Part shown: positions 35,912 through 64,000 of the stretch, piece after piece
How positions within the stretch are numbered: the first letter of the stretch is position 1
Layout of the letters: each line of letters opens with the position of its first letter
Assembly (NCBI GenBank): GCA_010645155.1
Contig: JAAGOF010000109.1
Span: 1,274,042-1,338,041 of the forward strand
DNA length: 64,000 nt
Direction of reading: 5' to 3'
DNA from: Tigriopus japonicus
Lineage: Eukaryota; Arthropoda; Copepoda; Harpacticoida; Harpacticidae
Notes under the pieces: model-generated
Told to the model about the DNA's origin: nothing
The model's database searches: none
The model's input: only the letters and a program-made list of their open reading frames with translations
Position numbers and translations under genes: made by a program

Positions 35912-37858
35912 CTAAACGTCTCTGTACACACGGGTGATCTCGGCAGCCACGCCATTTTGAGTGGGTAAGCTAGATAACCGTTGACCCGTTGATGTGGTGA
36001 GTAAAGTAGCCGATGGAGCAGTCGAAGCAGCCGTGATTGTGTATCTAACTCCTCCGGGAGATTGTCTCTGGTGAAGTCCTGCCAAGAGGCTGCTCCGGTA
36101 ATTGTCCATATTGGCACTATTGATTCCGCCAACCGAGTGACCCGGACCTCCCCGAGTTAGCTGCAGAGGTTGGGCTTCACGTCCGGCTCTATCCGAGGCT
36201 GCTAACAAATGGACCGTGCTCAAATTGGGTTCGGAACGTGCCACGGTCATTCCAGCAGTGGTGCACGTGTTTCGGTGAGACAGATCTGCGGCAGATAGGT
36301 ACAAGGTTTGCTGGGGACGGGCTCGATCCGCGTCCTCCCTCGGATATCCCGAGGGATAAGATGGCGATGAGCCGTATATCGAAGCGGCTGATAGGGAATT
36401 CACAGCCGAAGCGTGCAAGTTGTGCTTATTGGCGGTGCTCGGCAAGGCAGGAGTACGATAGTAGGCAGTGGAAATTGTACTTCGAGGTGGAGATGGGGAT
36501 CTTGAAGACAAAGTGGCTCGAATGAAGTTGAATTTTAAGACTGTTTGCTTGGAGATCATGGACTTACCTTTGGCGCTTTAAAGTGGCTAAGTTTTGAGGT
36601 TGATTCAGGGACGCTGCAGCATTGACCTGCGAAATAGTCGGGGCCAGGAGCATATGGGGATGATGTGGCTTCATGTATTGGATTCCGGACGTGGCTCTTT
36701 GAACTGGCTGTTGCATGTAGATATTACTATGAGACACGTCCTTGCTTCGACGGCGGTCATCCTCGTACAGTACCTAAGAAAACAATGGTGATATTACCCT
36801 TACGAATTTTGGGAAGAGGGCAAAAAAAATCGTTGCATGCACGTATCAAACGAAGTGAATAAGCAAATGGTGCGACAGAAATAGAAGAAAAGACAACTAA
36901 ATAAGACATTTGGTCAAACAAATCTCATGGTGAAACAGTAATACTAGAATAACTCAAAGAAAAGCAATTACAGCATCCGCATTAGTTCCGGCTATGACCT
37001 TTTTCAGGGTGTGAAAAAGTTGATGTTTCTCTTCTTTGAGCTGAGCCAACTTGATTTCTAATGAACTGATTTCATTTCGAGTGTCCACTAAAGTTTTGGC
37101 CTCTTGTTTCTTCTTTGTCTCCCTTTGAATCTTTTGACGCTCCACCTGAAAATGAAAATTTGCCATTTCGTAAAAAAAATTCAAGACATCAAAAAGGAGC
37201 TCAACTAAAACTAGGATTATTTTACGTAGTCATTAACCTATGGAGCTCCATCGACATTTATCTGTATCAGAGCATAACGCTCCGAAATCAGAAATGCTGT
37301 TGAAGAGGGGACGTAGGTTTTTTATTAATCCCTAACATTTGCGATTTAAATGTTTACTTCGCTCAAGGATCGGACGATTTGGGCAACAAGTTTCTAACAA
37401 ACACGGTTATAAAATTAAAAAGAGGTTGAGTTTCTATTAGCTCATTCTGAACATACATTTGGGCCCGTCTGTAACTATTTTACAAGACTGCCAATTTTTG
37501 AAATGATTTTACCGTTGTATCTACCATTTCTGTCTATTTATTGGTCATATTTCTATTTTAGGGCTCTAAAAGCTTTGCTTTTTTTGCCAGAAATCTGCAC
37601 CCTGACAAATGGGACGCAAATGTACGTGGACAGCTCAAAACTCACCTCTTGGGTTTTGTCCAACATTTGCTTCTTCTTCTGTCTCTCTTTGATCACATGG
37701 GCTCTTAGGGCCTCCCATGTGGCCCTAGGCATCTTTGGGCGCTCTATGAACAATGAAGGCACTTTTTCCGTGGGTCCCCCTAGTGCTATGGGATGGCCTG
37801 AGGGCCCATGGGACGACCCAGTCCCAGCATTGGAGTGACTAACGCCACCTGAAGACAT
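35912..37858 (-). CDS. GPS2: GPS2-like co-repressor subunit, copy A
   Basis: GPS2 is a subunit of the nuclear NCoR/SMRT-HDAC3 co-repressor complex, and its N-terminal coiled coil makes the contacts. Exons on the minus strand are 37858-37646, 37145-36999, 36773-36568 and 36500-35912, all in frame, giving 384 aa. Residues 38-51 contain the family start motif ERPKMPRATWEAL, followed by a Lys/Arg/Gln/Glu-rich coiled coil across exon 2 ending LAQLKEEKHQLFHTLKK, which closely matches the vertebrate segment LALQEEKHQLFLQLKKV. Exon 3 starts VLYEDDRRR. The C-terminal two thirds is Ser/Ala/Tyr-rich and probably disordered. Copy B lies 530 bp upstream on the same strand. The last-exon acceptor was placed to give RSPSPPR, matching copy B; a nearby upstream acceptor would add residues. 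The 3' end faces the ENTREP-like gene, 231 bp away. Confidence 0.82.
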
Positions 37859-38388: not shown

Positions 38389-39633
38389 TTACACCTCTCT
38401 CTGGTAAAGTCGGGGCATGCCTTGAGGAAGAGGTCCACCTTGAGGCGGTCCAGTCTGTGGGGGAACATTGGCCAATCTCGGCACCCCATGCAGGACTCCG
38501 ACCGAGGTCGTAGTAGACGCATTAGGGTATCTGAGGGCCGTTGATCGGGGATATCCCGCCATGATAGAGCCTCGGAAATTGTCGGCCGATTGGGGAGCCA
38601 CCCCATGCGACACCCCTAAGTTCATAGGGACACTTCTTGGGGGCACAACATTTGTATAATTGACCCGTGACGCGGTGGTTTGAGACAGATATGGGTGCTT
38701 GTTGCGATCAGCCTCCTCCCTGGAAATACTAGGATACATCTGGTAGTTGGCATGGTTGCCGTACATGGCTGATGCCGAGGCTACGGCTGAGTTATATTTG
38801 GCAGGTCCGCCCTGAGTGGCCACTGTAATTGGGGTCCGATAATAGGCCGATGAGATGCCAGCTCTGGGTGGTGATGGTGATCGGGCTCGTTTCTGATAGT
38901 TGGTCACTTGTTGTTGTGGCTGAGACGAAGGCGTTCCTTGGGCTAGAAGCATGTGGGGATGGGGTTTCATGTATTGCTGGTTGGGATTGGGCCTCACACT
39001 CGGCTGGAGATACATCTGAGGCTGACTGACATCTTTAATCCGACGGCGATCATCTTCATAGAGGACCTATGGGAATAAATCATGTTTGGAGACATGACAT
39101 CCATTGAAACATTCATATTCATAACCGTACCTTCTTCAATGCGTGAAAGAGTTGAAGCTTTTCTTCTTTGAGTTGAGCCAATTTGGTTTGGAGATTGTTG
39201 ATCTCCGACTTGGTATCCTCCAATGTCTTGGCCTCTTGCATCTTCTTCGTCTCTCTCTGAATCTTTTGCCTTTCCACCTGTCGAGCAAAACCTCATTTTC
39301 AACAAAAATGTCTTAATAGTCCAAAAACATCTAGTGTAGATACCTCTTGAGTTTTATCTTGTTCCTGCTTCTTTCTCTGTCTTTCTCTCAAGATATGATT
39401 CCGTAAAGCATCCCACGTGGCTCTAGGCATCTTGGGCCTTTCAATGAAGAGCGAGGGCAATTTTTCTGTCGGGCCTCCATGACATCCAGAATGACCTAGA
39501 AATATTTAGTTATTTGATAACCCTAACCATCTCTTCAATTTATTACTACAATGCTTCTTCATGCTAAAATACCTGAATTGGCATGGGATGATCCACCTCC
39601 AGAGTTGTTATGATGAGCTCCTCCCGATGACAT
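38389..39633 (-). CDS. GPS2: GPS2-like co-repressor subunit, copy B
   Basis: Exons on the minus strand are 39633-39573, 39495-39344, 39277-39131 and 39066-38389, in frame, giving 345 aa. The order of modules equals copy A: GPTEKLPSLFIERPKMPRATW, coiled coil (about 80 percent identical over the shared 49-residue exon), VLYEDDRRR, then a Pro/Gln/Ser-rich tail with RARSPSPPR and AYYRTP. Gene structure differs: B has an intron inside the N-terminal Ser/Gly stretch that A lacks, and B has no intron before SPSPPR, where A has one. B is the 5' member of the tandem pair. It would serve the same nuclear co-repressor role; whether A and B differ in expression cannot be seen here. Confidence 0.82.
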
Positions 39634-43905: not shown

Positions 43906-46569
43906 TTAAATTTCAAACGACCCAGTCAGGAGGAGACTGCTTTCTCGCATGTGTTGGAATGTGAGAGGTGTCCCTAATCTAGCATCGGCTCGTTTATAAT
44001 GTTGGTTAAAGTCCAATCGGAAGCTCAAGAACTGCAGAGCCTGATTTTGACTGCAGGTCAACTGTAGTAGGAAAGTTCGAACCATATCCTGATAGGACTG
44101 GCTGACGATCTTGAGTTGGGATTTGAGGTGTGGCAATGTCACCTTGACGAACTCCCTTTTCCGCGATTTTTGCATTTGCTCGTCTGCACTCGTCAAGCCA
44201 TACTGACCTGCTCGCTCGTTTCGACGCAAAGTAGCCTCATCGGCACGACGAGATTCGGCTTCCGCAATGGCCGCTGTTTGCATTTTATTCTGAATGGATT
44301 GGAACTCGAGGATTCGGTCATAGATGGCTCGGAGTTGGGTAAGCAACTCATTGGACTCTTCGTCCAAAAGAGCTTGTCTTAGAAGAGTTTGGAGAAATTC
44401 TTCGTGAGCTTCGATGACCTCGTCCAGGCTCTCGGCTTTCTTGAGTTGTTTGATTAAAATGTCCCAAGAACACTCCATGACCTCGAAGGTGATGTAATAG
44501 GCCAGCTGATGTATGAAATGGATCATCTCTGAGCAGAGAAGATTGGCTATGTGGAGTAAGGGTCGTAATTCGGGCACGGTCTTCGTCATCTTAGCCAGAA
44601 CGGTTTGATCCCGCCAAACACAAGATAGGAGCCACTCGATTCGCTTGGCACGCCAAAGAGCATTGAATAACATAAGGTATTGATTCATGACCTTCGGCCC
44701 GAATACTGTACCAATGGGACCAACCACTTTATAGTCCAAAGAGAAGACGTCCCAACCAATGTCACCGGGTTGAGTATCGAGGAGTCGGACATCCAATCGC
44801 TCCAGGATCTCCGGGTCTTCGAACTGGGCGTTCGTGGATCGAATCGCCGTCTCTAGGATTCCGGCTAAGGTGTGAGGGAATAGGGTCGATGCGGATTGGC
44901 AGAGCTCTTCTTCCAAGAGTTCCAAAAGATAACGAATGATGTCTCCTTGGCCCAAGAGGAGATACTTCCGCATTGCGGACATGTGATCAAGCAATTTATA
45001 ACGCGTAAAAAGAACACTCAACACATGGGACGATGTATCACGGTAAGCTCTTTGAATGGTGGAATGAAGTAGGCTATCACTTTGAGCACTCGCAAATATA
45101 CTCTCTGGTGACGTTGCGTTCAAATTTTCCTTGACAATGTCCCTTCCAGAAATGGGCGTGGTGTCTTTGCACACTTCATGTAGATAATTGATGTTCTTGC
45201 CCGTGGCCAGGATCTTTTTCACCCATGCCAGACTCAAAAACTTGGGTATCATCGAGTGGCGAATGCTGTATTTTTCGTGCCAAAGGAGATCCCCGTGAAT
45301 CTTAGAATCCGAAGCAATGAAGAACTCGTTGAAAGGATCTTCCAGAGTTCCATCGGAAATCCAACGCAACACCATCAAGTACATTGGCTTACAAACCGTG
45401 CACAAGAGGGCATGTACTGTTTCCGAACTCGGAGTATCCCCGTGATGTAAGTAAGAGTAAATGGTTGAGATCAGGGCACCTCCTCGCAGTCCTTGGCACG
45501 TTTGCACAATGGAGACCAGCAGTTTCATTCGGTTCATGGGCTCTAGTGTCCACACCAAGAGATGTTGAAGGCTCAACGTCGACACGGAATCCTGGAGTTG
45601 GCCTTCCAAAGTGGACAAGAGTCGATAGAATTCAGCTAGCTCGTTCTTGAGAGCCGTGACGAAACTCTGAGCCGTAAGACCGATATCTCGTTCTTCGGCC
45701 ATTCGTTCGCAAAACTCATTCACCTGACTGAAAAGCCAGCCTAATTCGGCCAATCTCAGCGAGATCTGAACCACCGAGGGTGAGAAATTTTGTCGATACA
45801 CCTCGGACAAATTGAAACGACCCGATTGATGGTTCACTTTCAACATTGTGCCTTCAATCCCTTGGAATGAATAGATCAACTCGCGAAGCAGGGCCTTTTC
45901 CGAGCCCTTGACCTCTTTTTTGGGCGGAGATTGCGAATTCTTAGCCTGAATCAGATGCTGAATCGGTGATTTGGGCTTTGGCGGCAACGGCGGATGATAA
46001 CCCGGTCCTAAATGGGACCGAATCTCATGAATTGAGGACAAATACGACGAAGGTGTCTCACCATTGGCCAAAATTGACAACCCACTCTCGCCATTAGCCG
46101 GATAATGAGGCGTGGACTGTTGGATTCCGCCCAATTTCGAATGGAAAGGAGCCACTTTTCGATGTTTGTCCGCCCCCGGCTTCTCACTTAAATGATAAAA
46201 GAGTTGCAAAATCCCCGCCCGATTCTGAAGGACCGACAATTTTTGTAATCGGACGTATAAATCCTTGAATTTAGCCACATCTTGGGCTCGATCTTCGCGA
46301 ATCTGAAAAGGGAACCAACCATTAATCACATTATTTCGCAAACAAATCAATTTGAAGAACCCCACCAATTTCTTTTGCAAGTTTTCCACAATGGCCAATT
46401 CGGATTGAACATGATTGGAACTAGAGGCCGATGAAGAGAGCAAGGCCAAGGCCGATTGATAATGGGAAGACACCAATTCTTCCTCACAGCCGAATTTAGG
46501 CCCCAAAAGACGCACAATCAAGGCGTGAACCCCTTGGGCAGGCGGATTAGACGCGGGCATAGACATCAT
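43906..46569 (-). CDS. TUBGCP3: Gamma-tubulin complex component 3
   Basis: GCP3 (Spc98 family) is part of the gamma-tubulin small complex and ring complex that nucleates microtubules at centrosomes and spindles. The gene is intronless and encodes 887 aa, close to the 907 aa of human GCP3. Residues from about 220 (LLRELIYSFQGIEGTMLKVN) to 540 form the N-terminal GRIP1 region, with LRLAELGWLF, WISDGTLEDP and EFFIASD. The C-terminal GRIP2 gamma-tubulin-binding half contains LDHMSAMRKYLLLGQGD, TNAQFEDPEILERLDVRLL, GDIGWDVFSLDYKV, LWRAKRIEWLL and, near the end, LQFLSFRLDFNQHYKR. These match vertebrate GCP3 closely and in order. The first in-frame ATG is at 46569 (MMSMPASNPP); the frame is open nine codons further without an ATG. 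It is convergent with the zinc-finger gene, 121 bp between stops. Confidence 0.96.
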   Translation of the reverse strand: MMSMPASNPPAQGVHALIVRLLGPKFGCEEELVSSHYQSALALLSSSASSSNHVQSELAIVENLQKKLVGFFKLICLRNNVINGWFPFQIREDRAQDVAKFKDLYVRLQKLSVLQNRAGILQLFYHLSEKPGADKHRKVAPFHSKLGGIQQSTPHYPANGESGLSILANGETPSSYLSSIHEIRSHLGPGYHPPLPPKPKSPIQHLIQAKNSQSPPKKEVKGSEKALLRELIYSFQGIEGTMLKVNHQSGRFNLSEVYRQNFSPSVVQISLRLAELGWLFSQVNEFCERMAEERDIGLTAQSFVTALKNELAEFYRLLSTLEGQLQDSVSTLSLQHLLVWTLEPMNRMKLLVSIVQTCQGLRGGALISTIYSYLHHGDTPSSETVHALLCTVCKPMYLMVLRWISDGTLEDPFNEFFIASDSKIHGDLLWHEKYSIRHSMIPKFLSLAWVKKILATGKNINYLHEVCKDTTPISGRDIVKENLNATSPESIFASAQSDSLLHSTIQRAYRDTSSHVLSVLFTRYKLLDHMSAMRKYLLLGQGDIIRYLLELLEEELCQSASTLFPHTLAGILETAIRSTNAQFEDPEILERLDVRLLDTQPGDIGWDVFSLDYKVVGPIGTVFGPKVMNQYLMLFNALWRAKRIEWLLSCVWRDQTVLAKMTKTVPELRPLLHIANLLCSEMIHFIHQLAYYITFEVMECSWDILIKQLKKAESLDEVIEAHEEFLQTLLRQALLDEESNELLTQLRAIYDRILEFQSIQNKMQTAAIAEAESRRADEATLRRNERAGQYGLTSADEQMQKSRKREFVKVTLPHLKSQLKIVSQSYQDMVRTFLLQLTCSQNQALQFLSFRLDFNQHYKRADARLGTPLTFQHMRESSLLLTGSFEI

Positions 46570-48527
46570 CGAGAAGGAAGACCATGGAGGATTCAAGGAA
46601 TACTAGAATTCAAGGGATCTCCGCGGAATATGACCGCTCAAACCATCTTGCCTACTCATAAACACAACCTAGGAAACTGAGCAAATGGGTGACTGGATGA
46701 AACTAAGGAGATTGGGGGGTGATTTGGGGGGTCTCTAAGGCGATCAGATGGGGATGAATAGGGCCAAGTTAGGTGAGATTGGAACTGGAGGATTTTTTTG
46801 AAAATTAAGATTAGTGAGGCTGAGAGTTCGGGTTTGACCAAGTTTTCCAATATAAACACTGATGAATTAAAAGAAAAATAGTTAAGTCAAAGTGATAACC
46901 AGATGGATATTAAGAGACACTCAGCATCTCGTGTTCCGGGTTTGAGGCCCTGCAGTGTGGATTGTAAAATAGGCAACAAACCATTGATGTTAACCGGTTA
47001 AGGCAGCGTTTTATGACAATAATACTAGGTTGAGAAAAACCTTGACTAATTGTCGTGATTTAAAATAACAAAGTCATTGGTATACAAAAATATTTTTTAA
47101 GAATTGAAATGTAAGATCATGCCAGCTCAAATGGCTCTTGTTTGGCTTTCATTCATTTTCACAATGTTTGATTTGAATTCTTCATCGTCACCTTTGACTT
47201 TGATAACAAAGCCCGAACGGCCCATTTCGTTCTTGAAGGCGGGAAAACATAGTTATGAAGTGCGTTTAAAGTTAAAGCAACACTCGTTAAGGCAATGGAA
47301 TTTGACAAAGCATTTCATTTTCAAATAATAATTACACACTTATTTTACATTCGAAGGCAAATCTAGTTATTGAGTCGCAAATTGGATAATTTCTCCCCAT
47401 ACGGAGGGATGACGTCATCGGGATCTAGAATTGCAGTTCAGGCTTGCCAGAATGTCACATTTATCTGCCAAATTTTTCAACTACCCGTGATACCAAACCG
47501 AACGAAATCCATAATTATTCTCATTCTCATCATGCCCAAAAAGGATCGGATTTTCATCAAACGAATCTAATGTTCTAAGAAATTTACAAATAATACTGTA
47601 TTTTGGCTCCCGTAAGCTCAACAATGCATCACTGTCTAAACTTCCTTCTTTCTCTCTCGCTCTCTCTCTCTCTCTCCCATGTATTTCATGAAGGAGTCAT
47701 ATGCTCGTGGTAAAGGCCAGGCTTAGAGAACAGAGAAGCAGGGCCAAGCTTTGATTGGCCTTAGCTACATTATTTCCACAGTCCTTCACAAAACACAACG
47801 CAATTGTGCCATTTTAAAAGAAAAACACATTCACTTGTAAGCGATTGTGATTTGGATTGCTTTTGATTGCCAATTTTGCTGACGACATTTGAGCTGTTGA
47901 GTCATACTTGAGACAAAATTATGGCTTTGGCCGCTCCTTTCCTGTTATCAATTCCTGTTATCAAAATCACTACGATTTTTGTGCTCCTTCCATTTTCTGA
48001 CGAGTGACATTTATTTTCCTTTTGGTCTTGACTGGCGGTGAATATTATTAATCTTGTTTTAAAAATTCTTTTCACCAAAAACAACTAATAATTGTAAAAC
48101 CCAAGCTTTTTTATTGGAGTTACGTTGGTGATGCACCTAAAGGGTTCTTAACTAACAACGAAACAGCTGACTACTTTTTTTGTGTTTAATTCACACTAAA
48201 AATTTGTGTTACCCATGTATTTGAAGATTTAATGAAGGAAAGCGCATTTTTCCAAGCATCGGAGGTTTTAAGAAGGAAAACATTGTCGATTTTGCTCTCA
48301 ACCTCCATTTTTAAGATGCATGTTTATCCATGAATTCCTCCACACCCAAAGACTGATACTAATATTTGATATAGTAAAAATGTAATGATATAATCTGGGT
48401 TACCAACTAGCTCAAGATCGATTGCCCGGTCAAGTTACCTCAAAAATCCTTCAGAAAGAAGCCTTATTGATGTATTGACTAATCCTCTCTCTTTATCTAG
48501 AGATCCGATCTTGAACAGTGACTAACA
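46570..48527. other. Intergenic stretch
   Basis: This divergent interval should hold promoters for GCP3 (minus) and phosphatidylinositol synthase (plus). It includes a CT-rich simple repeat near 47651. A 74-codon ORF at 47104-47328 has a hydrophobic start but no recognisable family or splice support. Confidence 0.4.
47651..47677. repeat. (CT)n simple repeat
   Basis: Nearly pure CT dinucleotide run. Confidence 0.8.
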
Positions 48528-49717: not shown

Positions 49718-52700
49718 ATGAATCATCACCTCAACCCTCTTAAGCTTTATATTGTTATCATACTAAATATCCATGTGATAGGCGCTTACAGAGCAGGTAA
49801 GACTAGAACAATTCAACAATTTTCACGGGAATAACATATTTGTCATATGCTCTTGGACAGATTTTTACCCGGAAAGCTCCGGAACAGAGGAATTACTATC
49901 TATACCGGATAGAAATTTGTTCAAAAATGCGGATTCACCTCAAGCTTTGGCTGTTAAACGGTTACAGAATGAAACAAGGGACAATTGGTCCTTTGACGAA
50001 GTATCTATTGTGTCCGATAGATATCAGGTAAGATCCGTATAACAACATTTGTGAATACTGTGAATATCGTGAAATTGTAATGAAGAATAAGAGTGAAGTT
50101 TTTTTTGAAAACTTTTAGAATGCAAGAAACGAAAAATGCGAATTGAGAAACTTGAACTGACTTTGCAAAAATCGAAGTAGTTTCAAATTATTTTGTGCTA
50201 TTTCTGTACGAGGAACAACAAATGTAGAAGCAAAGAACAGTTTTTCCCTGAGGTTGGGGGTTAAGTACATCATGGATTTTTTTCGTAAATAGCCTAAAAC
50301 AATTTTGAGATCAAGCAAGAATTCGAAAATCCGTGATTATCTTTTAGTTGGACCCGTTCTATACTTTTCACTTTTCTTGCTTTTCGCACCATATGTGTAT
50401 CCAACTGAAGTACTCCTTCTTTCTTGGCACTTGAAGGATTGCTTTAGTACTTATTAGGTATGATTGATTGTGGTTCAGAATTGAATCAAGGGAGAGTTCT
50501 TCTCTTTTATGTTTGTCTCAGCTTTGAGGGAAAAAAGGAAAGTGCTCATTTGAAGAAAGCAAGAACACTAACCAAGCTTCTTAATTTTTTGTTTGCCAAA
50601 AAATGGGAATTAGAACGAAGTCTTTGGGATTCCCTCTTTCTTTTGCTTATCCTAGACTTGTTGGTCATCAAATCAGGGAAATGCGAAGAATGCAAGAATG
50701 TTGATTAGAGTTCTTGCTCTCATCAAAATAAAAATTTACCGTCTTTGCTTCAAGGCCATGTAAAAGAAGGAAGCTTTGCTTTTCGGCCAGAATTACTCCT
50801 AAGTTCACTTAACATTTATTGGGTTGTAAAAGCATGAATATTTTTGCCTTCTTATTAGAGCACTTATGTCTCTTAAGCTTACCATGATAGATTAGAATTA
50901 AGGTGCTTGTCGATCAAAACTTAATCTTTGAACTGTGCAATGTTTTCATTAGGGCTTGAGAGAAATAAATGAAAGCGGGGACTTTGGAACTGATTACGAG
51001 GATAGAAACGATTACCAAGAAAACAAAATTTCAGACCAAGGTAAGAAAATGGTCACGGCCAACACAAAACTAAATTACCTAAAATTTTAGAACAGAATAC
51101 ATACTTATTGATAAATGAACCAGGTTACAAAGATGTTCCAACCCATGACGAGACTTTCGAATACCATTCAGGGACCAATCCTACGAAACGGGATCTTGCG
51201 GATGAGGGTGAGGATTCTCTGGATTGGAACATTGACTTTGACTATGAAGAAGGATTACCTGTCCATGAAACTAATGTTGGTAAAAGTCTACTATGAAATT
51301 GTTTTATATTGACAATACTTTTTCAAGTGGGAAAGCACTACATTTCTTATTTTTTTGTAGCATTGTTTACTTTGTTTCAAAGTTCAGTCAGAAATCGTTT
51401 CCAAAAGAGTGACGCATCTCAAACTGTTCTTGGAAATACCGTATTTCTTTGAAAATTTGTAACGCTAATTTTTTCTTTGTCAAAACGTAAATAGTTTGCC
51501 TTCGAAAATATTCTTACTTCTCTCTTAGCTTCTTCAGGAATGAATACCCCTTTTGTGTTGATTTTCATTTTTTAACTCTTGGGTGCGAGACATTGGGATT
51601 TTTTTTTAAATTGCCTTTTATCATCCCTATATTTAATGCATTCGCCAATTTGCACTTGTTCTTAAATCTAGTATAAGATTAAAATGAAAAGTAAAGGTAC
51701 CATGAATTTTAAAATTCTAAAATATCTGAAAATATACAAAAATCTATCAAAACAGGGACAAATAACATTGAAATTCGAAGTATTGAATCAACTTTATTTA
51801 CCTCACCTTTTAACGTAAAGTCCTTGTTCCTACATGACACTGGACGTCTGCCGTTCCCAAAATTCGTCTTATCCGTTTCAGGTGCCAAATTGAACGAAAC
51901 CAAAGACATCGATTCATCCATCGAATCCGTTCTCGGCCGCCCTCGTCAAGAGGGTTCGTTGGGTCAGATCCAAGATTTTCCGACCAGAATTCAGGATGGA
52001 ATGGAAGACTACACTTTGGACGTTACAGTGATCAAAATCAAGGAGAGGGTGAATAACTTTAGATTTCGTTCCCACGGACAGACAAGGTGAGATATTGCCA
52101 TGGAAAGATATGAGATGGAAATGTTAGGAAAGCTCTTTCCACTTTTTAGACGCTTGAAATCGACTGTAAAGAGATGGCCTCATCAGGAACGATTAGATCC
52201 CAACGAGCCAATGGGATGTGGTTTTCCAGTGTGCGCTATGGTTGACATGAAACCCATCCGTTTTCAATCTTTGTGTAACTTCACGGGTTGGATGCGCCAA
52301 GAAGGACACGTTCGTCGAATTATTGAAGTTCAAAAAGGCGGTTGTGAGGATGCAAGTAAGCAATGATGTGTTTAGAACCCCAATTGAGTGCTAAAAACAA
52401 AGACAGAGAAGAACATTCATATCATTGTACAAAGGGAAGAATGTCCTAGAACTATCCTAATGATAAAAACAATGTTGCTTCAAACAACTTCACTCAATTG
52501 GGGTTCTAAAGCCAAAAGAAGACTGTAAAATGTTGAAAAAAAGAAACAAAGAGGATTTTTTAGCATTCTACGAAAAGAAAAATGCCCTTAAACAACCCCA
52601 ATGATAAAAACCATGTTGCTTTCAACAAAAGATAGACAATCACTATCACAAAGCAAGTCAGTAGATCAGAGAGTTTGAAGATATTTGACTTAACACAATG

Positions 52701-55700
52701 AAGCAACACAGTTTGAATTCTTTGAGAGACATCAATTGGGCATCAAATGATTGCTCATTGAATCCTTGTGGACTTTTGTTTTATGACTTATGTCAACAAA
52801 ACGACATTAATCCGAATTATATTGCATTTCTTCATTACGTCCAGGCTATCACGCAGGAAAATTCACACCAACGTAGTAACGCGCCCTCACTCGATCCCAC
52901 TCCATGTAATACCGTCCTCCTTGCCCTATGCAAGGACATCTTAATTTCTCAGGACGAATTACAGAAATACAGCTTAAGGCATGTCATTGTACTAAAATGA
53001 GAGGTTATTTCAAAGCAGTAAATGTTCCGTTGAATTTTCATCGTAGTAACTCGGCCTTAAGTGGTATTCTGTAATATATCCTTCGTTGAGTCATCCTTGC
53101 CCTATGTTACCACTATTCCTCCAAATGCCCTTAATAAATGACCTAATGCTTTAACTTCGTTGGGGTGTTTAATCAACAAAATTTATTATTATTAAGAAGT
53201 CGAAAGACTAAATTTTCAAACTACCGGTAATTCGTGAATATTTTAGCGTATTTTCAAACTATTTTGCACATTTTTTTAGGAAATTTACTTTTTTTCCTGG
53301 ATATTTTGCTTTCCTTCAATTTTTTTCTGATCCTTGAACTTTTGAACTTGTAAATGGAGTTCAAGAAAAAAGGAATATTTCCTTACCTTGAGGAAATTTG
53401 TGCTTCTCCAAATTCATAAATTGAATTTACACATTTTTCTATTTTTTGAAATGCAAGTGTTCGTGGGAAGAGACAGTATTTAAAAACATTCATTCTTTCT
53501 CAAAATATTCTTTGAATGTGCCCCTAGATGTTCAAAATACACCGTAAATCAAGAATTTTCTTCAACTTATTTAACCAACTGTTTTCACTTCTCGTACTTT
53601 TCACCATTTTTTTGACTATTTTGTCAAAAAAGTTAACTAAAAATTATTTTTTTTTGTCGTATCACTAGCTAAACATCAGCTCTCTAGTTATTATATTGCA
53701 AGAGATTGCAAAGCAAAAAATAACTTCATTTCTTCTTCATTTAGTTGAGAGCGTTGGATTGGATCGGGATTGGGCTGAACAAGTTGTGGAACAATGTCAA
53801 TGTGGTTCCCATGAAGGTTGCAATACACCGATTTGTCTCAATGACAATGGTCACGCCAAATCTTTCCCAAATACTTGTTCCGCCGTCCAATATTTAAAAG
53901 GCAAAACCCAGCAAACACTAATTGCCATTGGATTGGGGTCTTGCAGGGATCTATATTCAGGTAAATCATCATCAAGATAATATCGACTTTTTGACAATGA
54001 TGGAGGTGTGTTTCTTTAGCTTGCTTGTTCACGGAATGGTTTGACTTTGATGAGCCTTGTCGTAAGGCAGATGTAGAATCGGTTTATTATTCAAACATTT
54101 TCCTAAGTTGCCTCGGAAAACATGTAAGTTATGAGTGCAAGATATTCAACTAAACAGGATCGATCGGAAGAAAGTCGTTTTTCTAGGGACGTCACCGGTC
54201 CTGTGCTGCCCAAAATATCGAATATCCCGCTCAATTTCAAACACTGGATGGTTATGAACAAGTGGAAGGATTGGTTTTCTCAAAGGATAAGGACAAGGTT
54301 GTTTGTTACAACGAGCACAATAAAGTCAAACCGAAGCCGCCTCATTTTTGGGTTGATGAAGAAGTCACATGTCGGGATTTCAAGATGAGGTAATCATAAC
54401 TCAACAAAAATGGCTTGTATTTCTCGAATATCGTATGCTTTTAAATTTTCTTGGAGAAGGCTGAGGGGATTACTGGCGATTAAATTCAGCAAAGCCATGT
54501 GGATTAAAAAGTTTTGCAAATTGGAAAAGTTATGAGTGCAGCCACAAAAGCTTGACTAATTGAGATTGAATTGGTGGAATCAATTAAAACCAAGATAATT
54601 AGCCTTGAAAACTTTTTGAACGTACTCTTGCCCGAATTTGCGATCTTCTATACATTTTTCTATCATCCTAATTTTCACTTCTCGTTTGAATACTTGAATT
54701 AGATATTGTTGCAAAAACCTTTGGGGAGAGGCTGTTTCATTGCCCAAGATTCCCAAAGATGATGTGATAGTGGATGCCCCTGTGGGTCAAACTCTCTTTG
54801 ACACTTGTGACTGGTTGAATTTTATGAGTGTGAGTAATGGTCGAGGTTTGGGAGATGTGGAATCGCGGGCCTTGAACGCTAAATTCATGAAGCAATCGAC
54901 TTGCAAAGGCTCGAACTTGGCCCCACAATTCATTGATGCAAGAACTGTGAAAGACGACACTCCTTGGCATGAAACGGGCGAACTCATCACGAAAATTACA
55001 CCAACGTAATATTTATATTTCTGTAAGTTAATGGGCATAATAAGTTCCAAGCTCAAAGGTGGAATCTTTTTCAGTTATGGTTTTTATTGTGATAATAAGA
55101 ATAACGAGGTTATTGGCAAGCAATGTAGTGACTACAAAGTTCGATTTTGTTGCAAGAAAGAGAGTCCGGCTCAATGGGGGAAATGGAGTGAGTGGACCGA
55201 ATGTTCCAAAAGTTGCGGAAGTGGAACGAAGAAACGGGACAGGGTCTGTGTAATGAAAAAAGGCGAGAAAGAAGGTTGTTTCAATGATGGGCCACATGGC
55301 GAGAAAAGGTTCCGTGAAATGGAGATAGCTTGCAATGAACTACCGTGTCCACGTAAGTTCGAAATCCGACAAAGCCTTCGAAGCCTTAGATTTCAATAAA
55401 GTATTTCTTTAAACCTACTCTTTGCCCTTTCAATCCATGCACATTAAACCTCTACATGTGATGAAGACTAAACAGATATGTAAGAACGGTGTCCTTTAGT
55501 AAAGACAGATCAGTAAGCGCTGAATGTCTCGTAAAGGTTGTGAAACCCTACTGATTTTCTGGACCTACTTATACAAAATAAGGGTATTTTACCATCACGT
55601 CCATTCTCATGTATATTTTAATTATGTAAGGATGGATTTTAACTATTCCATCGTTTGTGTAAGATCTTAAAATCAATTATCCTAAAGTTGTTCATTATTG

Positions 55701-57537
55701 ACCAATCATTGCTTCGAAAATTAAGATTTCTAATTGTCGGCAGGTGATCTCCAATGGATGGAATGGCAAGCTTGGTCTGATTGCAGTGTGACTTGTGGTC
55801 ATGGAGTTCGTCGGAGACATCGGGGATGCTTTCCACCAAAGGGAGGAGGAAAGGAGTGTCCCATAGCTGGAGACAGCCAATATTCAGAGGAACAGAAATG
55901 TCATGAGTCCCCTTGCTTGAGTAAATACTTTTCCAATTCAGGTGTACTGTAGCTAAGAAAAGTTTCTTGCTAACTTTGAATAGACCCTCAATGGACAAAA
56001 TGGGGCGATTGGAGCGATTGTTCCGTGTCCTGTGGAATAGGATGCCGCTCAAGACGGAGAGCCTGCGTCGATATTGCAGCAGGCAATGCCCCTCTAGACA
56101 ATAATGGTGTTCTATGCCTTGGTCCAAGCATCCATGATGACGCCTGTGATACTGGTTATTGTCCAGGTAAATCTTTCAGTGAACCAAAGTGTTCTAAATT
56201 TAGGGCTACCGATCTCACACTTGCATTTAAGTTGATGGTGGCTGGACCCAGTGGCAAAATTGGGGAGAATGCAACGTAGCATGTGGAGAAGGAGTCAGGA
56301 TTCGCAGACGGTATTGCACCGAACCTTTCCCTATGCATGGAGGACGATCTTGTCCTGGTCCTGGAGCAGAAGATGGGGATTGTGTGGATTTACCTGAATG
56401 CCCCCGTAAATTTGGTGATCAAAATTAGGCTCAAGAAGCGCTTTTGATAATATTTTTTGTCATTTAGAACATTGCTTGTTCTCTGCTTGGGGAGAATGGG
56501 GCGGCTGCAGTGTGACATGTGGAGATGGACCATTTGCCGGAACGCGTGAAAGACAGAGATTCGAAGCTGTACCCGCTAAAAATGGCGGAAACGAATGTTG
56601 CGGTCCAAAGTCCGAGATTGAGCAATGTGAATTTTGCCAGACAGAACGAGATCTTGGCCAACCAAGGCTGTGTATTTTTCATTGTCCTGTGGATTGTCGG
56701 TTATCGGAATGGTCACCCTGGGCCGGATTTTGCAGGAAATGCTACAAACCAAATGAAAAGCAACTCGTGGGCTTGTTGAAAAGGACAAGAATGAGATTCG
56801 TTGAGGTTGATGCTAAATATGGAGGGAAACAATGCACTTCCCTACAAGGTGTGAAGCTCCAAGCTTTAAGTCGTCTTGAAAGAATCTTCACAAGATGTGT
56901 CTATTTTTCCCAACAGGCACTGCATTAACAATGCAAGATGGCGCGGAAACGGAAGAGAACCCATGTGTTCCCGATAAAGACGTGCCTCCTTGTCCTGCTG
57001 CAGCCAGTCCACCCTTCTTTTGGAGCCCATGGGCCGAATGGTCGGCCTGTATTGCGGCTTGTGGATCTAACGGTCAAAGAACAAGGAAAAGGAAATGTTT
57101 TGGGAATGGCGGGAGTTCAGGGTGCCCAGGCAAATCAGAGGAGGAGGAGAGCTGCGCCAGCATTTGTCCACCGGGTATGATATTCTAATGTAGGATCATA
57201 GTTGATCCTAAAAAGTTGAAAAAAAACAACAAATTTTGATGATGGTTATTTTTGGGCATGTTAAGATGGTTGGTCCGAGTGGGACGAATGGTCACCGTGT
57301 GAGAAAACTTGTGGGAAAGGTCAATCAGCTAGGAGAAGGACATGCCGAGATGACCATCGTCTGGATATTCCTGACTCCGAGAAAACTTGCTCGGGTATCC
57401 AACGAGAAACTCGAGTCTGCGATTCCGGTTCCTGTGATCGAGTTGAGGAGATCATCACGGCTGGCAAAGATCCCACAGGCCTAGTTCAAGGCCAATATTT
57501 TAATAAATTACAAAGAATCGATAATTCAACTGTGTAA
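49718..57537 (+). CDS. Secreted Kazal-like / WxxW / thrombospondin type-1 repeat protein, paralogue 1
   Basis: Seventeen exons keep frame from ATG to TAA (1160 aa): 49718-49796, 49861-50027, 50953-51040, 51091-51279, 51882-52086, 52150-52355, 53745-53960, 54020-54123, 54187-54389, 54703-55005, 55075-55352, 55744-55920, 55984-56166, 56232-56405, 56468-56848, 56917-57174, 57266-57537. Order: signal peptide (hydrophobic YIVIILNIHVIG); acidic linker of about 200 aa; Kazal-like module (CGFPVCAMVD to VQKGGC); second one (CNTPICLND to LGSC); two mucin/CILP-type WxxW domains (EWFDFDEPC to FKMRYCC; CDWLNFMS to YKVRFCC); eight TSP1 repeats with WxxW and CSVTCG cores, the sixth degenerate. TSP1 repeats bind matrix and are often C-mannosylated at these tryptophans. 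It is probably an extracellular matrix or cuticle-associated protein. The exon 54020-54123 and its 63-bp intron are the least certain. The closest known relative by domains may be CILP, but the combination with Kazal-like modules is not one I know. Confidence 0.82.
50028..50952 (+). other. Intron 2 of TSP1 paralogue 1
   Basis: AT-rich. An 82-codon ORF at 50460-50708 lacks domains; no exon supported. Confidence 0.5.
52371..52510. mobile_element. 140-bp element with 20-bp perfect terminal inverted repeats
   Basis: The left arm TTTAGAACCCCAATTGAGTG (52371-52390) is the exact complement of the right arm at 52491-52510. The interior is AT-rich and non-coding. It sits inside intron 6 of the TSP1 gene. 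A diverged copy of the interior right half, with ATGATAAAAACCATGTTGCT, follows at about 52560-52630. This fits a MITE or a foldback insertion; the target duplication is not clear. Confidence 0.65.
52560..53110. repeat. Degenerate repeats in intron 6 of TSP1 paralogue 1
   Basis: Besides the diverged copy near 52600, CGTAGTAAC followed by CG and CCT occurs at 52872 and 53042, and TCCTTGCCCTATG occurs near 52918 and 53094, so a block of about 170 bp is imperfectly duplicated. CTTAAGGC near 52975 and GCCTTAAG near 53054 also form an inverted pair. A 100-codon ORF (52698-53000) overlaps this block and has no recognisable domain. Confidence 0.45.
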
Positions 57538-57541
57538 TAAA
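57536..57541 (+). terminator. Polyadenylation signal overlapping the stop of TSP1 paralogue 1
   Basis: The stop TAA (57535-57537) is followed by TAAA, so AATAAA starts on the second base of the stop codon. A functional site here would leave a 3' UTR of perhaps 20 bases. Confidence 0.5.
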
Positions 57542-57624
57542 GGCAAATTCAATGATTAATGGTCTTTCTCGGCGGGAGTCAGGAATGATCTTTTTAAATT
57601 ACGATCTCTTTATGTTAAACCGCG

Positions 57625-60600
57625 ATGCTTCAAGCCCTTTTCTATATCTTACTGCACTTTGACAATTTTGCTGTGGGATCTATTTCAAAGGACTCAGGTA
57701 ATTTAACAAATTTCACTCATATCCATACTTATTTGATGTAATATTAAATTCTTGACATAGGGTTTCGAATAAAGGATGAGTTCCCTCTTGCGTCTGCGGT
57801 GATCCATTCAAAATTGAATTCAAACACTACTGAAAATTTGGACGATAGGACAGATTCATCAGAGAAATATGATTCACTACAAACAATCCAAACGAAAGAC
57901 GCAAGCCAACTCAAAATTTTACAAGCCTTCACTGATGAACAATTTCGTGATGAAATCATAAAAGACTTGGATGCTAAAGATTCCAACGGAATCAACATTC
58001 CCGCAGAAGTGGTCCAAGTGAAACGAAAGCCCAATAAACGAGATGGTGGACTGGAAATGCGAGACTTGGACGCATTGGTTCAAAGGTGGGAATATAGATC
58101 TGGACTGGATCCTGAAGATGTGGATGGATGTGGATCTCCAGTATGTGCCAATATTGACAGTCGACCTATACGTTTCCGTTCATGGTGTCATTTAGCCAAA
58201 TGGATGATGGCAAATGAGCACATCAGACGATTCCTGCACATTCAGAAAGGAGATTGTGCAGACGCGAGTAAGGAACAACAATTTGACAAAATCAAAGATT
58301 GGAAACCAACTTATTTTTTGATTTAGTCGAAGGCAAAGGACATGACTGGAACTGGGGAAGCAATCCTGGAGCTTGTGAAAGTTGCCAAGCATCGGTTGGA
58401 TGTCGAGAAAAAGTTTGCATAGCAGCCAAAGGAGTGGCGACAACGTTTACGAATATTTGTGAGGCCATGAAAGTCACCCACGCTGCCACGGATGTAGTCA
58501 CGATCCTTTTTGCCCTTGGCGATTGCGAGAACTTACTCACTGAACAAAGTCAGTCCTTTACTTTTTAGTGTCTTCTCATGCCCAGATTCACTGTCCATTG
58601 CATCATAATTTTACTTAAAGGTTGTTTGTATACGGAGTGGTTTGACATTGATGAACCTTGTTATGATGGTGATACAGAGAGTGCTACTCAAAATATGGCC
58701 ATGGTAAACAGTCTACCTCAAACTGGACGATTTCGCATGTGTCCACGAATTAGACAGGTTGGCGAGCCTCAGTTTCGTACGATTGAAGGTGGGGAAATTC
58801 CTCAAGAACAAAAGGTTTTGAAAGACTTTGAAGCCCAAAGATTGACGTGCTTAAATAAGGATCAAACTACCAAACCCGGTCCACCTAATCATTGGTTTGA
58901 TCTTCAAGTCAGATGTCGCGACTACAAAATGAGGCATGTGGTCAATTTTGAGATCAAGGTGAAGACATTTAATGAACCTAGTTTTTTCAGGCATTGTTGT
59001 CAGTGTTTGTATGGATGTTATCCCAAGATCAACGGCCAGTGGAAGGTAGATATGCCACAGATAGGGCATTTATACGAAGAATGTGAGTGGATGCCATTTG
59101 TCAGTCAAGAAAGTCCAAGAGCAGATACTTGGGATGCTGAGGATAGAGCGACAGCATTGAATTCTGAATACAAGAGACATGTGTGTGGTGGAAATATTTT
59201 CGATGCCATGTATATCGATGCACGAACAAGACAAGATGACATCCCTTGGGACGAAACCGGAGAGATTATTACCAAAAACACACCAAGTTATGGCTTCTTG
59301 TGTATCAACAAGAACAACAAACCATTCAATAAGAAGTGTTCCGATTACAAAGTGAGGTACTGCTGCCTTAAACAACGACCAGCTCAATGGGGTGAATGGA
59401 GCGAGTGGACCGATTGTTCCAAGACTTGTGGAGGAGGAATTCGAACTCGAGATCGAGTTTGCAACTCCAAGAAGGGAAATAAGGAAACGTGCTTCGGGAA
59501 TTGGGTTGATCTCGACGAAACTGGAAAAGATCGGCATGCCAGTTTGAAATACCAGGAACATGCGTGCAACGTTCTCAGCTGTCCAGGTACAACTGACTTT
59601 CTGAGATTTTCGCATAAGTACATGAATTCTTTCGCGGGCAAACATGTAAATGGGGGTTATAGTGTGATTTACAATACTCCAAATACGTACAGGGTTGTCA
59701 ATATTTAGCGTCTCATCCCAACAAAATACTTACTCTAATAAATTCTTAGTTAGTTAAAATACGTTAATATCAACTAAGGGAAGCAATTTTACCCTAGAAG
59801 TACTTGGAGCAAGCCTTTTGGAACTCGATTTACTCCTTGATAAACCATGAATGTTTTTCGAATGATGCCACACTTTTGAAAATTTTACGCACTCGTAAAA
59901 ACCTCTCTTAATTCAACATCAAAAAACCTAATACACTGAATCCTTCATGGGGATGGTAAAAATGTGTTCCAATTTCTCCTTTATCCTATTTTTTAAACAA
60001 AGTAGTAGCTTCATCTTAAAACGTTAACATCTAGAAGCACTATTTACGGTATGGACAGCACCAAAGCCTTTGTATACTTTGTACCAACACTTTATTCGAG
60101 TACGATGCAAGAACAAAGATCTTTAACGACGTCAACTCACCTGTAATATCATTGAAACTGGACTTTTGTCAGGAGACGCCAATTTCTTACAATGGATGTC
60201 CTGGGAGACCTGTCCAGTTACTTGTGGTCAGGCTCAAAGAAGGCGGAGACGTGGCTGTAACCCTCCAACATACGGTGGCAAACCATGCCCATCGGACAGG
60301 AGGGAATACGAGGAATACGATGATTGCAAACTTCAACCTTGTCCAGGTTTGACAAGATGCTTCAAGAACTCAATGATTCCTAAGTTATCTTCCCTTTTTG
60401 TTTAGATCCACTTTGGACCACTTGGACTGAATGGAGTGCTTGTAGTGCCACTTGTGGCTTAGGGAAGAAAAGGAAATCGAGGAAGTGTGAAGATACAATT
60501 ACGAGGCAACCAATGCAACCAGGTTTGGATTGCCTTGGAGGAGCGTCCGAAGCTGACGAGGAATGCAAACTCGATGACTGTCCAAGTAAGGAAAAACATC

Positions 60601-62601
60601 ACTGTTGTTAAGGTTTATTGATGGTGGAATTATCCGCTTTGTTAGTTAATGGGCAATGGACAGAGTGGCAAAGTTGGGGATCCTGTAGCGTTCTTTGCGG
60701 AAGAGAAGGGCATCGACTTCGTCAAAGGTATTGTTCCAACCCTTTACCACAATTTGGAGGAGATTCCTGTCCTGGAGATTCGGAGGAGAAAGGCTCCTGC
60801 CCCGATTTGAACCCTTGCCCAGGTATTAGGTATCTCAAATTGAAATATACAGTGTTTAAAATGGGAACCCACTTTGATCCATAAAGTGAATTGCGAATGG
60901 TCGGAGTGGGGTGCGTGGAGCTCTTGTAGCATCACTTGTGGCAATCCAGGCGAGGGACTTGAAACTCGTGGACGACATATTCACCAAAAAGCTGAATTTG
61001 GAGGCCGAAAGTGTACCGGTCAAGAACTTGAAAATCAGATTTGCCTTCACGAGAGCATGAGTTCCTTTTCTGAATCAGACAAAGGAAAGGCTATTTTCTA
61101 TTGTCCAGGTGAGGCAAGGCAATTGATGGGTAGATAAAAGACAATTTATATGTCAGTATGCCTTCAGTTGATTGCGTCTGGGCTGAATGGACAAGTTGGT
61201 CCACTTGTCCTGATTGCTTTGGCGAGGTATCGGGCTATCTGAGGGAGGATCTACCAGATTTTGAACAAGTTCGGACCCGAAAGATCCTACAACAACGAAA
61301 GTACCGAGGGAAAAAATGCGGCACTTCGTCCATTGAAGTGGACACTATAAAAGGTCAATGCACCATTGAGAATGTTCCACCTTGCCCAGTGGTGGCCAGC
61401 GGCAGTTACACCACTCAATGGACTCCTTGGACCACCTGCTTAGCTCAATGTGGTAAAAAGGGTCAGAGGAAGAGAGATCGACAATGTTCCAGTAATGATT
61501 GCAATGGATCTTTGGAGGAAACTGAGCCTTGTTCAGGGTTTTGCCCTCCAGGTAAGATCTCCTCTTGATTTTTACTACAGAGAGCACAATCGTTTATTCT
61601 TCTCCAGAGGGCTGGTCCCAATGGGAAATGTGGAGCAATTGTCCAGTAACCTGTGGAACTGGCCAACGAGCCCGAATCCGATATTGCCGGGACGATAAAA
61701 AGGAAGAGCGAAGAGGAAAAGAAACATGTCAAGGTGTGGCCAGAGAAACTCAGAGGTGTGACATGGGCAGATGTGGATCGGTGACTCAAGTCAATGACGT
61801 GGTCCAAAAATTTGCAGCTGAGCAAGAAGCAAAAGAGCAAGGCTTTACATCTAGCTCTCCAAGAGGTAGTGAATGGAGCAAACCACTAACAGAAGACAAT
61901 TTTGGAGATGGGTCTTCGGCCACCGATCGAAAGAATTATGACAAAGATGATAGTTCTAATCTTCCCCGTTCTGAAGCAAACAATCAACTCCCTGGGGAAA
62001 GGAATGAACCGTCAGACTCGGACCGAGCTCAGGAAATCATTGGCGAAGGAGAAGTGGCAGAAAATTATGACGAGAGGCGCGATGGAAAGGATAATGAAAT
62101 CTTGGATTCATCGGATGACCCAGCTTCACAAGCCCAAAATGCTTATGGAACAATTGAGGACAAAGTTTTTCAATCCTTGCCTAATCAACCTCATTCAGTC
62201 CAGGAATCCGAAAACCACGCAACTGGGACAGACAGCGCGTACTTGACAAGAACTTATTCCCCGGAACTTGAGAGCAACACTCAATTTGGCGAGGAAGCAT
62301 ATGAATACAACTCCAAAGCCACAAAAGATTCCAATGAGAGCAACAATCGCATTGTCAATGGTGCTTCCGAGGTGCGCAGCCAGAAGTTTGGTCGCAAACA
62401 AAATCGGATGGTCAGACACGACCATCAATCTATGTACAAAAATCAGCGTAAGTAATTCTTGATCGATGGTGCTTTTTACATTCATAAGTAGAAAATAACT
62501 CGCGTGACTTATCATTTTCAAAATCATTACCAGATGATGACGAAATGATGGACAACTCTGCAGAGTTAAAATGGAATCAACCTCACCAATTGGATAACTA
62601 A
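57625..62601 (+). CDS. Secreted Kazal-like / WxxW / thrombospondin type-1 repeat protein, paralogue 2
   Basis: Exons in frame: 57625-57697, 57761-58267, 58327-58548, 58621-58933, 58991-59586, 60173-60346, 60406-60585, 60646-60822, 60887-61108, 61168-61551, 61608-62447, 62534-62601 (1251 aa). Order: signal peptide (MLQALFYILL); acidic linker; Kazal-like module (CGSPVCANID to IQKGDC); second one (CREKVCIAAK to LGDC); WxxW domain 1 (EWFDIDEPC to YKMRHCC); WxxW domain 2 (CEWMPFVS to YKVRYCC); eight TSP1 repeats colinear with paralogue 1; then a Ser/Glu/Asn-rich acidic tail of about 225 aa that paralogue 1 lacks. The junction 58933/58991 uses a GC donor (AG|GCATGT) and a ttttttcag acceptor; the 57-base intron is a multiple of three and open, so retention would add 19 residues (1270 aa). 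The second TSP1 repeat is shortened. It starts only 87 bp after the stop of paralogue 1. Role inferred as extracellular matrix. Confidence 0.82.
59587..60172 (+). other. Intron of TSP1 paralogue 2
   Basis: AT-rich intron between TSP1 repeats 1 and 2. No nested feature seen. Confidence 0.6.
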
Positions 62602-63336
62602 TGTTCGTACATAGGTCCTTAACGATCCTATCCATGAAGCCGAATGAGTTGAAGGTGAATGATGCAAAGTGACGGAAACAAAGAACGACCAACGGCATCA
62701 GTCAACAAATGTCCCGTAATATTTCAATGAGCTCGGAATCCCTACGTATTATTATTTTAGCGTCTCTTCCATGCTTCAAACAACGTGAAGATTGACGAAC
62801 CACACTTTGTTCTTTGACATTCTCTCCCGAATCATGCCAACACTGACATGTAAATTCCAACGTGACAACTGAATAGAGTCGAATAAATTATGAAAAAGTA
62901 ACAGTTGGAATGGGTTGGTACAAAATACACGTAACCTTCATGAGCCTAATCAAGCAAAAATCGTCGGAATGGCCATGAGTTCCTGATCGTTGGGATCTTT
63001 GCGATAGTTTTGCCACCATAAGGTTCAACAAGGAGGTTCTAGCTGCTGATACTAATCGGACTTATTCAGGCAGATGCCGTCGATAGAATTAGCGAGAATA
63101 GTTGTACATGTGAAGTTGTGAACATACTCGTAATTCTTCGGTCCTTGCACAAAAAGGGGGAGGGCTACTATGCGAAGACTTGAAATTGTAGCACAAAGCA
63201 ATTAGCAGATCCGATGCCTTAACTCACTCACATCGAATGAAACAGAAGCATTTTGTCGCCCCGTCCTTGGTGGTTGATGGTGGTGGAGATTCTCGGTATT
63301 GGTCAGTCGATCCTCTACATCCGAAAGATTGAGAGC
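62602..63336. other. Intergenic stretch
   Basis: Contains an AATAAA at 62882-62887 that probably serves TSP1 paralogue 2, then the likely promoter and 5' UTR of the next gene. No coding exon recognised. Confidence 0.45.
62882..62887 (+). terminator. Polyadenylation signal of TSP1 paralogue 2
   Basis: AATAAA 280 bp past the stop. Confidence 0.4.
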
Positions 63337-63631
63337 ATGCAGTTGGCGAAAAGTTTGTTGTTTTTAGCCCTTTTGGCGGCAAATACGAATTGTCAGTTCT
63401 TCCGTGGAATTGCCAATCTCATCTTTGGGGGCGGCAATGGGGGTGGTGGAGGAGGAGGGGGTGGAGGATTCAATTTGTTTGGTGGTCGTACTCGAGGTCG
63501 TTTCACGGATGATGGGACTCAAAGACCGGTGGCCTCGGGCAGAGATGAATTGTTTCCATCCGATTGCGGCAGAAATGAGGACACTGGCCGAGGAAAATTG
63601 TGCTTCCCCGACGGACTCCTTTGCCAAAAAC
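63337..63631 (+). CDS. First exon of a Gly-rich secreted protein, 3' part missing
   Basis: ATG 63337 starts a good signal peptide (MQLAKSLLFLALLAANTNC), with likely cleavage before QFFRG. A run of about ten glycines follows, then NLFGGRTRGRF and a cysteine segment FPSDCGRNEDTG, KLCFPDGLLC. The exon ends in phase 1 at a gtgagt donor (63632). The frame is open further upstream, but no earlier ATG leads into a signal peptide. The short Cys pattern after a Gly-rich stretch could be the start of a clip-type domain of a secreted serine protease or homologue; this is a guess, as no protease domain is in view. The remaining exons are beyond the window or unrecognised before 64000. Confidence 0.6.
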
Positions 63632-64000
63632 GTGAGTAATAATGGAGATAAGATTTTCAATTGGTTTTACTTTTCTTGTTGTGGCTCATCATCACGTTTT
63701 CAAGAACATTATAGCATGAATAGTTAGTTGACTTGGTAAAATGAAGGTCTAATCAATAGAGCTTATCTTAAATTTGCCTGAAAATGATATTTCATGTGTT
63801 CACCAGGTCATAGAAAATTTTCTTACAGGGTGTAAATGAGGCCATATTCCATCAAAAGGGGCGATTTTAACCATACAGTCATTGGCATAAGTTTTGGCCC
63901 CCTCGGACTTAATTAAGTAATTTTGCTGTATCTTGTAACTCTGGGCACCTACACCAACAGGAATTTAGACGGGTATAGTGGACACTATTTGTTAAGGTCC
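63632..64000. other. Probable intron of the Gly-rich gene
   Basis: AT-rich sequence after the gtgagt donor; no convincing next exon before the window ends. Confidence 0.4.

What the first reader, a model, noticed from the sequence alone, without database searches (positions are those of the whole stretch)
49718..62601. Tandem pair of Kazal-like + WxxW + eight-TSP1 secreted proteins
Both genes read in frame across 17 and 12 exons and share the same module order: signal peptide, acidic linker, two Kazal-like modules, two mucin/CILP-type WxxW domains, eight TSP1 repeats. CILP combines TSP1 with WxxW, but I know of no described family with this full combination. Two adjacent colinear copies point to a lineage-specific matrix or cuticle system.
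Basis: partly seen in the sequence, partly recalled or inferred. Interest (0 to 1): 0.75.

Follow-up and report, generated by a model that had tools for sequence, protein, structure and literature searches.

The report
Copepod twin-gene secreted matrix proteins
Two neighbouring genes in what looks like a Tigriopus copepod genome make related secreted proteins built from Kazal-like, mucin CysD-like and thrombospondin-type modules; the combination appears undescribed and probably builds extracellular matrix, but what it does is untested.

Summary
Gene A (17 exons, 49718-57537) and gene B (12 exons, 57625-62601) were rebuilt and match proteins from contigs shorter than the genomic spans, hence spliced transcripts (1149 aa, 6 differences; 1251 aa, 1 difference). 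Both carry two Pfam Mucin2_WxxW (CysD-like) domains and eight TSP1 repeats. The two modules in front hit no Kazal model (0 of 6 fragments), but AlphaFold models rank Kazal folds first, at low Z. Module 1's reactive loop is too short for a canonical inhibitor (12 of 12 rows), and both CysD-like domains lack the WxxW motif (0 of 24). The only named relative of this head is Tigriopus californicus TCAL_03259, a fused annotation of both orthologues, so the tandem pair is shared by two species; eleven unnamed relatives share the head. It is not CILP, a mucin or SCO-spondin. Best reading: a new variant of modular TSP1 matrix protein; function inferred, not shown. A's stop and B's start are 87 nt apart, an operon-like spacing that deserves a test.

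The parts
49718..57537 (+). Gene A: 17 coding exons; transcript-supported protein 1149 aa
   Evidence: P0013, 6 mismatches
57625..62601 (+). Gene B: 12 coding exons; protein 1251 aa
   Evidence: P0001, 1 mismatch
57538..57624 (+). 87-nt gap between A's stop codon and B's ATG; AATAAA at 57536 overlaps A's stop codon
49718..49796 (+). A exon 1, signal-peptide-like N-terminus
   Evidence: hydrophobic stretch read by eye
49861..52086 (+). A exons 2-5, acidic low-complexity linker (exons 4 and 5 begin at 51124 and 51882 in the transcript)
52150..52355 (+). A exon 6, holds Kazal-like module 1
   Evidence: fold by homology to B's module
53745..53960 (+). A exon 7, Kazal-like module 2
   Evidence: fold by homology to B's module
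54020..54740 (+). A CysD-like (WxxW) domain 1, exons 8-9 and the start of exon 10 (approximate end)
   Evidence: 17.8 bits, below cut-off 22.4
54809..55153 (+). A CysD-like (WxxW) domain 2, across one intron
   Evidence: 50.9 bits as a spliced fragment
55181..57435 (+). A eight TSP1 repeats
57625..57697 (+). B exon 1, signal-peptide-like N-terminus
   Evidence: in-frame stop upstream of this ATG
58087..58266 (+). B Kazal-like module 1, modelled piece
   Evidence: AF2 mean pLDDT 75.2; VIA-align
58327..58548 (+). B exon 3, Kazal-like module 2
   Evidence: AF2 mean pLDDT 80.3; VIA-align
58621..59017 (+). B CysD-like (WxxW) domain 1 (approximate end)
   Evidence: 25.4 bits
58934..58990 (+). 57-nt GC-AG intron inside B CysD-like domain 1
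   Evidence: absent from P0001
59088..59366 (+). B CysD-like (WxxW) domain 2
   Evidence: 50.4 bits; 50.9 bits
59391..61774 (+). B eight TSP1 repeats
61775..62601 (+). B acidic, low-complexity C-terminal tail, absent from A (approximate start)

Best explanation
A and B are two old tandem paralogues of a secreted, disulfide-rich modular glycoprotein family found in copepods. Shown: expression as spliced mRNA, module order, conservation of the pair between two species. Inferred: the TSP1 arrays form long rods carrying C-mannose (14 WxxW sites per protein, the first at residue 610 in A and 505 in B, where TSP1 begins) and O-fucose (5 CxxS/TC sites each). The Kazal-like and CysD-like head acts as an assembly unit: the first CysD-like domain keeps a D-x-D-x-P-x3-[GA]-D-x-E motif that probably binds calcium as in mucin CysD, while the Kazal-like modules have lost the inhibitory loop and are structural. 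The proteins would then assemble into an extracellular matrix layer (cuticle, basement membrane, egg-sac or gut lining), A and B perhaps as partners.
For: Transcript-level proteins for both genes. Pfam TSP_1 and Mucin2_WxxW over cut-off. AF2 strand-strand-helix-strand models with Kazal folds ranked first. 12 of 12 rows have C-x4-C in module 1 where 30 of 30 genome Kazals examined (the best-scoring of 91 matches) have C-x7-C or C-x8-C. Acidic motif in 12 of 12 first CysD-like domains, with glycine in 11. The MUC2 CysD1 crystal structure holds calcium and the domain takes part in filament assembly (PMC11912381, passages). Phase-1 introns: 11 of 16 in A and 10 of 11 in B, as expected of exon-shuffled extracellular modules. 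Glycosylation sites counted.
Confidence: 0.5

Rival explanations
1. Haemolymph or immune protein: a properdin-like or clotting factor in which TSP1 repeats bind surfaces and the CysD-like head crosslinks.
Against: TSP1 subtype models overlap and are not specific: TSP1_spondin and ADAMTS pass their cut-offs too, and CCN in A. No protease, VWD or C8 module reported at E <= 1.
Confidence: 0.2
2. Axon-guidance or Reissner-fibre-like protein related to SCO-spondin.
For: Bivalve proteins named SCO-spondin were the next hits (P0014 1.8e-38, P0015 1.1e-19).
Against: No VWD, C8, TIL or LDL-receptor module reported at E <= 1.
Confidence: 0.1
3. Secreted protease inhibitor delivered by matrix-binding TSP1 repeats.
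For: Kazal-like fold predicted for both modules.
Against: Reactive-site segment shortened in module 1 in 12 of 12 rows; no Kazal model hit. Module 2 is variable and in seven rows the segment is longer, so it is less clearly excluded there.
Confidence: 0.07

Closest known systems
CILP (cartilage intermediate layer protein)
   Same: Secreted, combines a WxxW (CysD-like) domain with TSP1 (family description recalled)
   Different: CILP has one WxxW and one TSP1 plus Ig and carboxypeptidase-regulatory-like domains (recalled); here two CysD-like, eight TSP1, two Kazal-like, and neither of the others reported
CysD domains of gel-forming mucins (MUC2, MUC5AC, MUC5B)
   Same: Pfam PF13330 over cut-off; non-significant sequence matches to 6tm6, 8oer and 8ov0 (E 0.15, 0.26, 0.57), with unrelated chains at similar E
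   Different: No VWD or C8 reported; WxxW motif absent in both domains of all 12 rows, while the genome's other CysD keeps WKRW
SCO-spondin and other TSP1-array proteins
   Same: Long TSP1 arrays, hits
   Different: The matches lie essentially in the TSP1 part; no shared head domain seen
Kazal and follistatin-type modules
   Same: Predicted strand-strand-helix-strand core; top-ranked fold matches at low Z
   Different: No sequence-level match, inhibitory loop of module 1 shortened

Membership tests
TSP1 repeat proteins | TSP_1 domains over Pfam cut-off | tested here: met
   A 191.6 bits, B 188.1 bits, cut-off 21.6; eight signatures each by the loose pattern
CysD / Mucin2_WxxW (PF13330) | Profile score over 22.4 bits | tested here: met
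   Whole proteins 43.8 and 52.5 bits; single domains A 17.8 and 50.9, B 25.4 and 50.9 (A's first is below)
CysD / Mucin2_WxxW (PF13330) | WxxW motif at the domain start | tested here: not met
   0 of 24 domains in 12 rows
CILP | Ig and carboxypeptidase-regulatory-like domains with WxxW and TSP1 | tested here: not met
   No such family reported at E <= 1 in either protein
Gel-forming mucins | VWD/C8/TIL assemblies and PTS regions | tested here: not met
   No VWD, C8 or TIL reported at E <= 1; PTS content was not measured
Kazal domain | Kazal profile match | tested here: not met
   0 of 6 fragments at E <= 10, HMMER filters on
Kazal domain | Kazal fold | tested here: inconclusive
Kazal-type canonical inhibitor | Full-length reactive-site loop between Cys 2 and Cys 3 | tested here: not met
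   Module 1: 4 residues in 12 of 12 rows, against 7 or 8 in 30 of 30 genome Kazals examined. Module 2 is variable: 4 in A, B, P0004 and P0011, longer in seven rows, unread in P0003
SCO-spondin | VWD, TIL, LDLa and TSP1 mosaic | tested here: not met
   Only the TSP1 part matches; the mosaic is recalled
Operon resolved by spliced-leader trans-splicing | Spliced leader on the downstream gene's mRNA | not testable with these tools
   Only the 87-nt spacing is seen

The most novel reading that the evidence does not exclude
A and B form a two-gene operon in a harpacticoid copepod: one pre-mRNA resolved by polyadenylation at the AATAAA overlapping A's stop and by trans-splicing in the 87-nt gap, giving co-expressed subunits of one calcium-dependent matrix assembly. 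A 2021 paper states that operons have not been reported in copepods (PMC7986045, passage), and a 2015 study found no hits of its known copepod spliced leaders in cyclopoid and harpacticoid data (PMC4664967, passages).
Probability: 0.2. Interest if true: 0.6.

Novelty: new variant of a known kind. Interest (0 to 1): 0.42.

Why it matters
It adds a modular architecture, not seen in the literature listings I could search, to the extracellular proteins of very abundant animals, and it shows CysD-like domains conserved without the motif they are named after. Tigriopus is a laboratory copepod, so the role in cuticle, egg sac or haemolymph, and the operon question, can be tested directly.

Tried and rejected
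Kazal by sequence: Pfam 0 of 6 module fragments (four from the window, two from relatives), hhalign against 30 Kazals of the same genome 2.0% and 5.6% (controls between unrelated module kinds at most 0.61%), PDB profile searches without a Kazal hit. The fold search was then used. Foldseek alone gave nothing at E <= 0.001 (0 of 43 and 0 of 217 matches); one Kazal chain in the listed rows of the first, two in the listed rows of the second.

Fusion reading: TCAL_03259 could suggest one giant gene. Rejected: its residues 1-680 map to A and 682-1175 to B, while the transcripts here are two separate proteins with their own starts and stops.

Recent duplication: rejected by 41-42% identity and the tree (15 rows, three long branches, two open forks; the forks joining B to P0003 and P0004 are not among the starred ones).

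Exon boundaries of my first A model (exons 4 and 5) were replaced by those of P0013. One search contained a strand error and failed patterns and was replaced.

The rows are not independent: P0006 and P0007 share, by eye, an identical N-terminal half, and P0010 is close to them. P0003 and P0005 are probably incomplete. P0016 came after the 12-row count; the three of its motifs tested agree. P0002 was left out of the 12-row counts because it is a fusion with missing exons. The 30 Kazals come from the best-scoring loci of 91 matches and many lie in one array.

Protein-based paralogue count in the genome: not obtained. Only the family search stands: 3 WxxW matches, two of them these genes; it is a lower bound.

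Full report
The window lies in a 195-Mb assembly of 158 contigs. The only named close relative of gene B is TCAL_03259 of Tigriopus californicus, so I take the genome to be a Tigriopus or near relative; the species is not told.

Gene models. Joining the open frames at splice sites gave 17 exons for A and 12 for B, with continuous phase. Two database proteins confirm them. P0001 equals B at 1250 of 1251 residues, and P0013 equals A at 1143 of 1149 once two acceptors are moved. Their longest contigs, 4592 and 4532 nt, are shorter than the genomic spans of 4977 and 7820 nt, so introns have been removed. Their source label, lgn, I read as Logan assemblies of public reads (recalled). B's 57-nt GC-AG intron is spliced out in P0001.

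Modules. Pfam finds TSP1 (191.6 and 188.1 bits) and Mucin2_WxxW (43.8 and 52.5 bits), both over cut-off. Five relatives scanned the same way give TSP1 in 5 of 5 and Mucin2_WxxW in 4 of 5, P0011 being the miss; the precomputed lists name Mucin2_WxxW in 8 of the 11 unnamed relatives. A loose TSP1 signature occurs eight times in each protein, a stricter one seven times in A and eight in B. The two modules in front are related to each other (hhalign 92.8% and 82.1%) and so are the two CysD-like domains (94.6% and 94.0%), while comparisons between unrelated module kinds give at most 0.61%.

CysD-like domains. The motif that names the family is absent: 0 of 24 domains in 12 rows. Domain 1 keeps the second Trp in 11 of 12 rows (x-T-E-W, with F in P0011) and has lost the first; domain 2 keeps the first Trp in 12 of 12 and has lost the second. 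The genome's other CysD domain (L009) has W-K-R-W. Domain 1 keeps D-x-D-x-P-x3-[GA]-D-x-E in 12 of 12 rows. MUC2 6tm6 shows a similar D-x-P ... G-D-x-E stretch in the printed alignment, although that match is not significant (E 0.15), other PDB searches rank unrelated chains beside the mucins, and domain 1's profile hit nothing. PMC11912381 (passages) says that the MUC2 CysD1 crystal structure holds calcium and that the domain joins in filament assembly. That this motif is the calcium site is my inference.

Family and age. Searches returned T. californicus TCAL_03259 and eleven unnamed relatives (P0003-P0012, P0016): 33-51% identical to B's head for the first ten, P0016 40% to B. The word-based search, its length limits and my three searches leave other lineages untested. 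TCAL_03259 maps to A over residues 1-680 and to B over 682-1175, so it is a fused annotation of a conserved tandem pair. In the tree B groups with P0003 and P0004 (88/93 and 92/98, not starred) and A is separate on a long stem; the duplication is old. In this genome the family search found three WxxW matches: A, B and L009 (lower bound).

Spacing. A's stop and B's ATG are 87 nt apart, and AATAAA overlaps A's stop codon. The cDNA contigs are 1082 and 836 nt longer than the coding parts, although A has only about 100 nt of room behind the nearest upstream AATAAA (49604) and the next AATAAA after B lies about 280 nt beyond its stop (62882). By arithmetic, the contigs may cross the A-B junction, but I could not see their DNA. 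SL trans-splicing is reported in calanoids, with no hits in harpacticoid data in 2015 (PMC4664967, passages), and operons were said not to be reported in copepods in 2021 (PMC7986045, passages). This is a lead, not a result.

Function. Secretion signals (by eye), disulfide-rich modules, 14 WxxW sites per protein beginning with the first TSP1 repeat and 5 CxxS/TC sites point to a glycosylated extracellular protein. A matrix scaffold is most likely; haemolymph defence or clotting and neural roles remain open.

Literature. Searches for WxxW with copepod, WxxW domain with thrombospondin type 1, Mucin2 WxxW or CILP, TCAL_03259, copepod with thrombospondin and Kazal, PF13330 and its names, and CysD with invertebrate showed no description of this architecture; I saw listings, and for only 15 of 1,112 papers. 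From the Oithona nana paper (PMC8301441) I saw passages only: a Kazal-containing spondin-1-like protein and a thrombospondin-domain protein interact there with IGFBP7, a different architecture as far as the passages tell.

Noticed in passing
window 57538-57624: Only 87 nt separate two same-strand genes, with a polyadenylation signal overlapping the first stop codon; operon-like.
   Followed up: partly
window 58934-58990: GC-AG intron of 57 nt, a multiple of three without an in-frame stop, so its retention would add 19 residues to the CysD-like domain; P0001 lacks them.
   Followed up: partly
L009 1501-1758 (G000:C11:6510022-6510279): The genome's third CysD domain keeps an intact W-K-R-W motif and scores 57.7 bits; the frames around it look sushi-like by eye, but Pfam names only the CysD.
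   Followed up: partly
G000:C24:924527-931230: Many of the genome's 91 Kazal_2 matches lie in one 1747-aa open frame with neighbours: a large Kazal array protein.
   Followed up: no
window 35915-36577 and 38392-39066, minus strand: Two open frames share, by eye, a motif like S-P-S-P-P-R followed by A-Y-Y-R-T-P; no Pfam family at E <= 0.01. They may be duplicated exons.
   Followed up: no
window 43909-46602, minus strand: Gamma-tubulin complex component in a single 898-aa open frame (Pfam GCP N- and C-terminal).
   Followed up: partly
window 63241-63636: Start of a Gly-rich secreted-looking protein just downstream of gene B; no Pfam family at E <= 0.01.
   Followed up: no
P0002 (T. californicus TCAL_03259): Public annotation fuses two tandem genes into one protein and drops exons.
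   Followed up: yes
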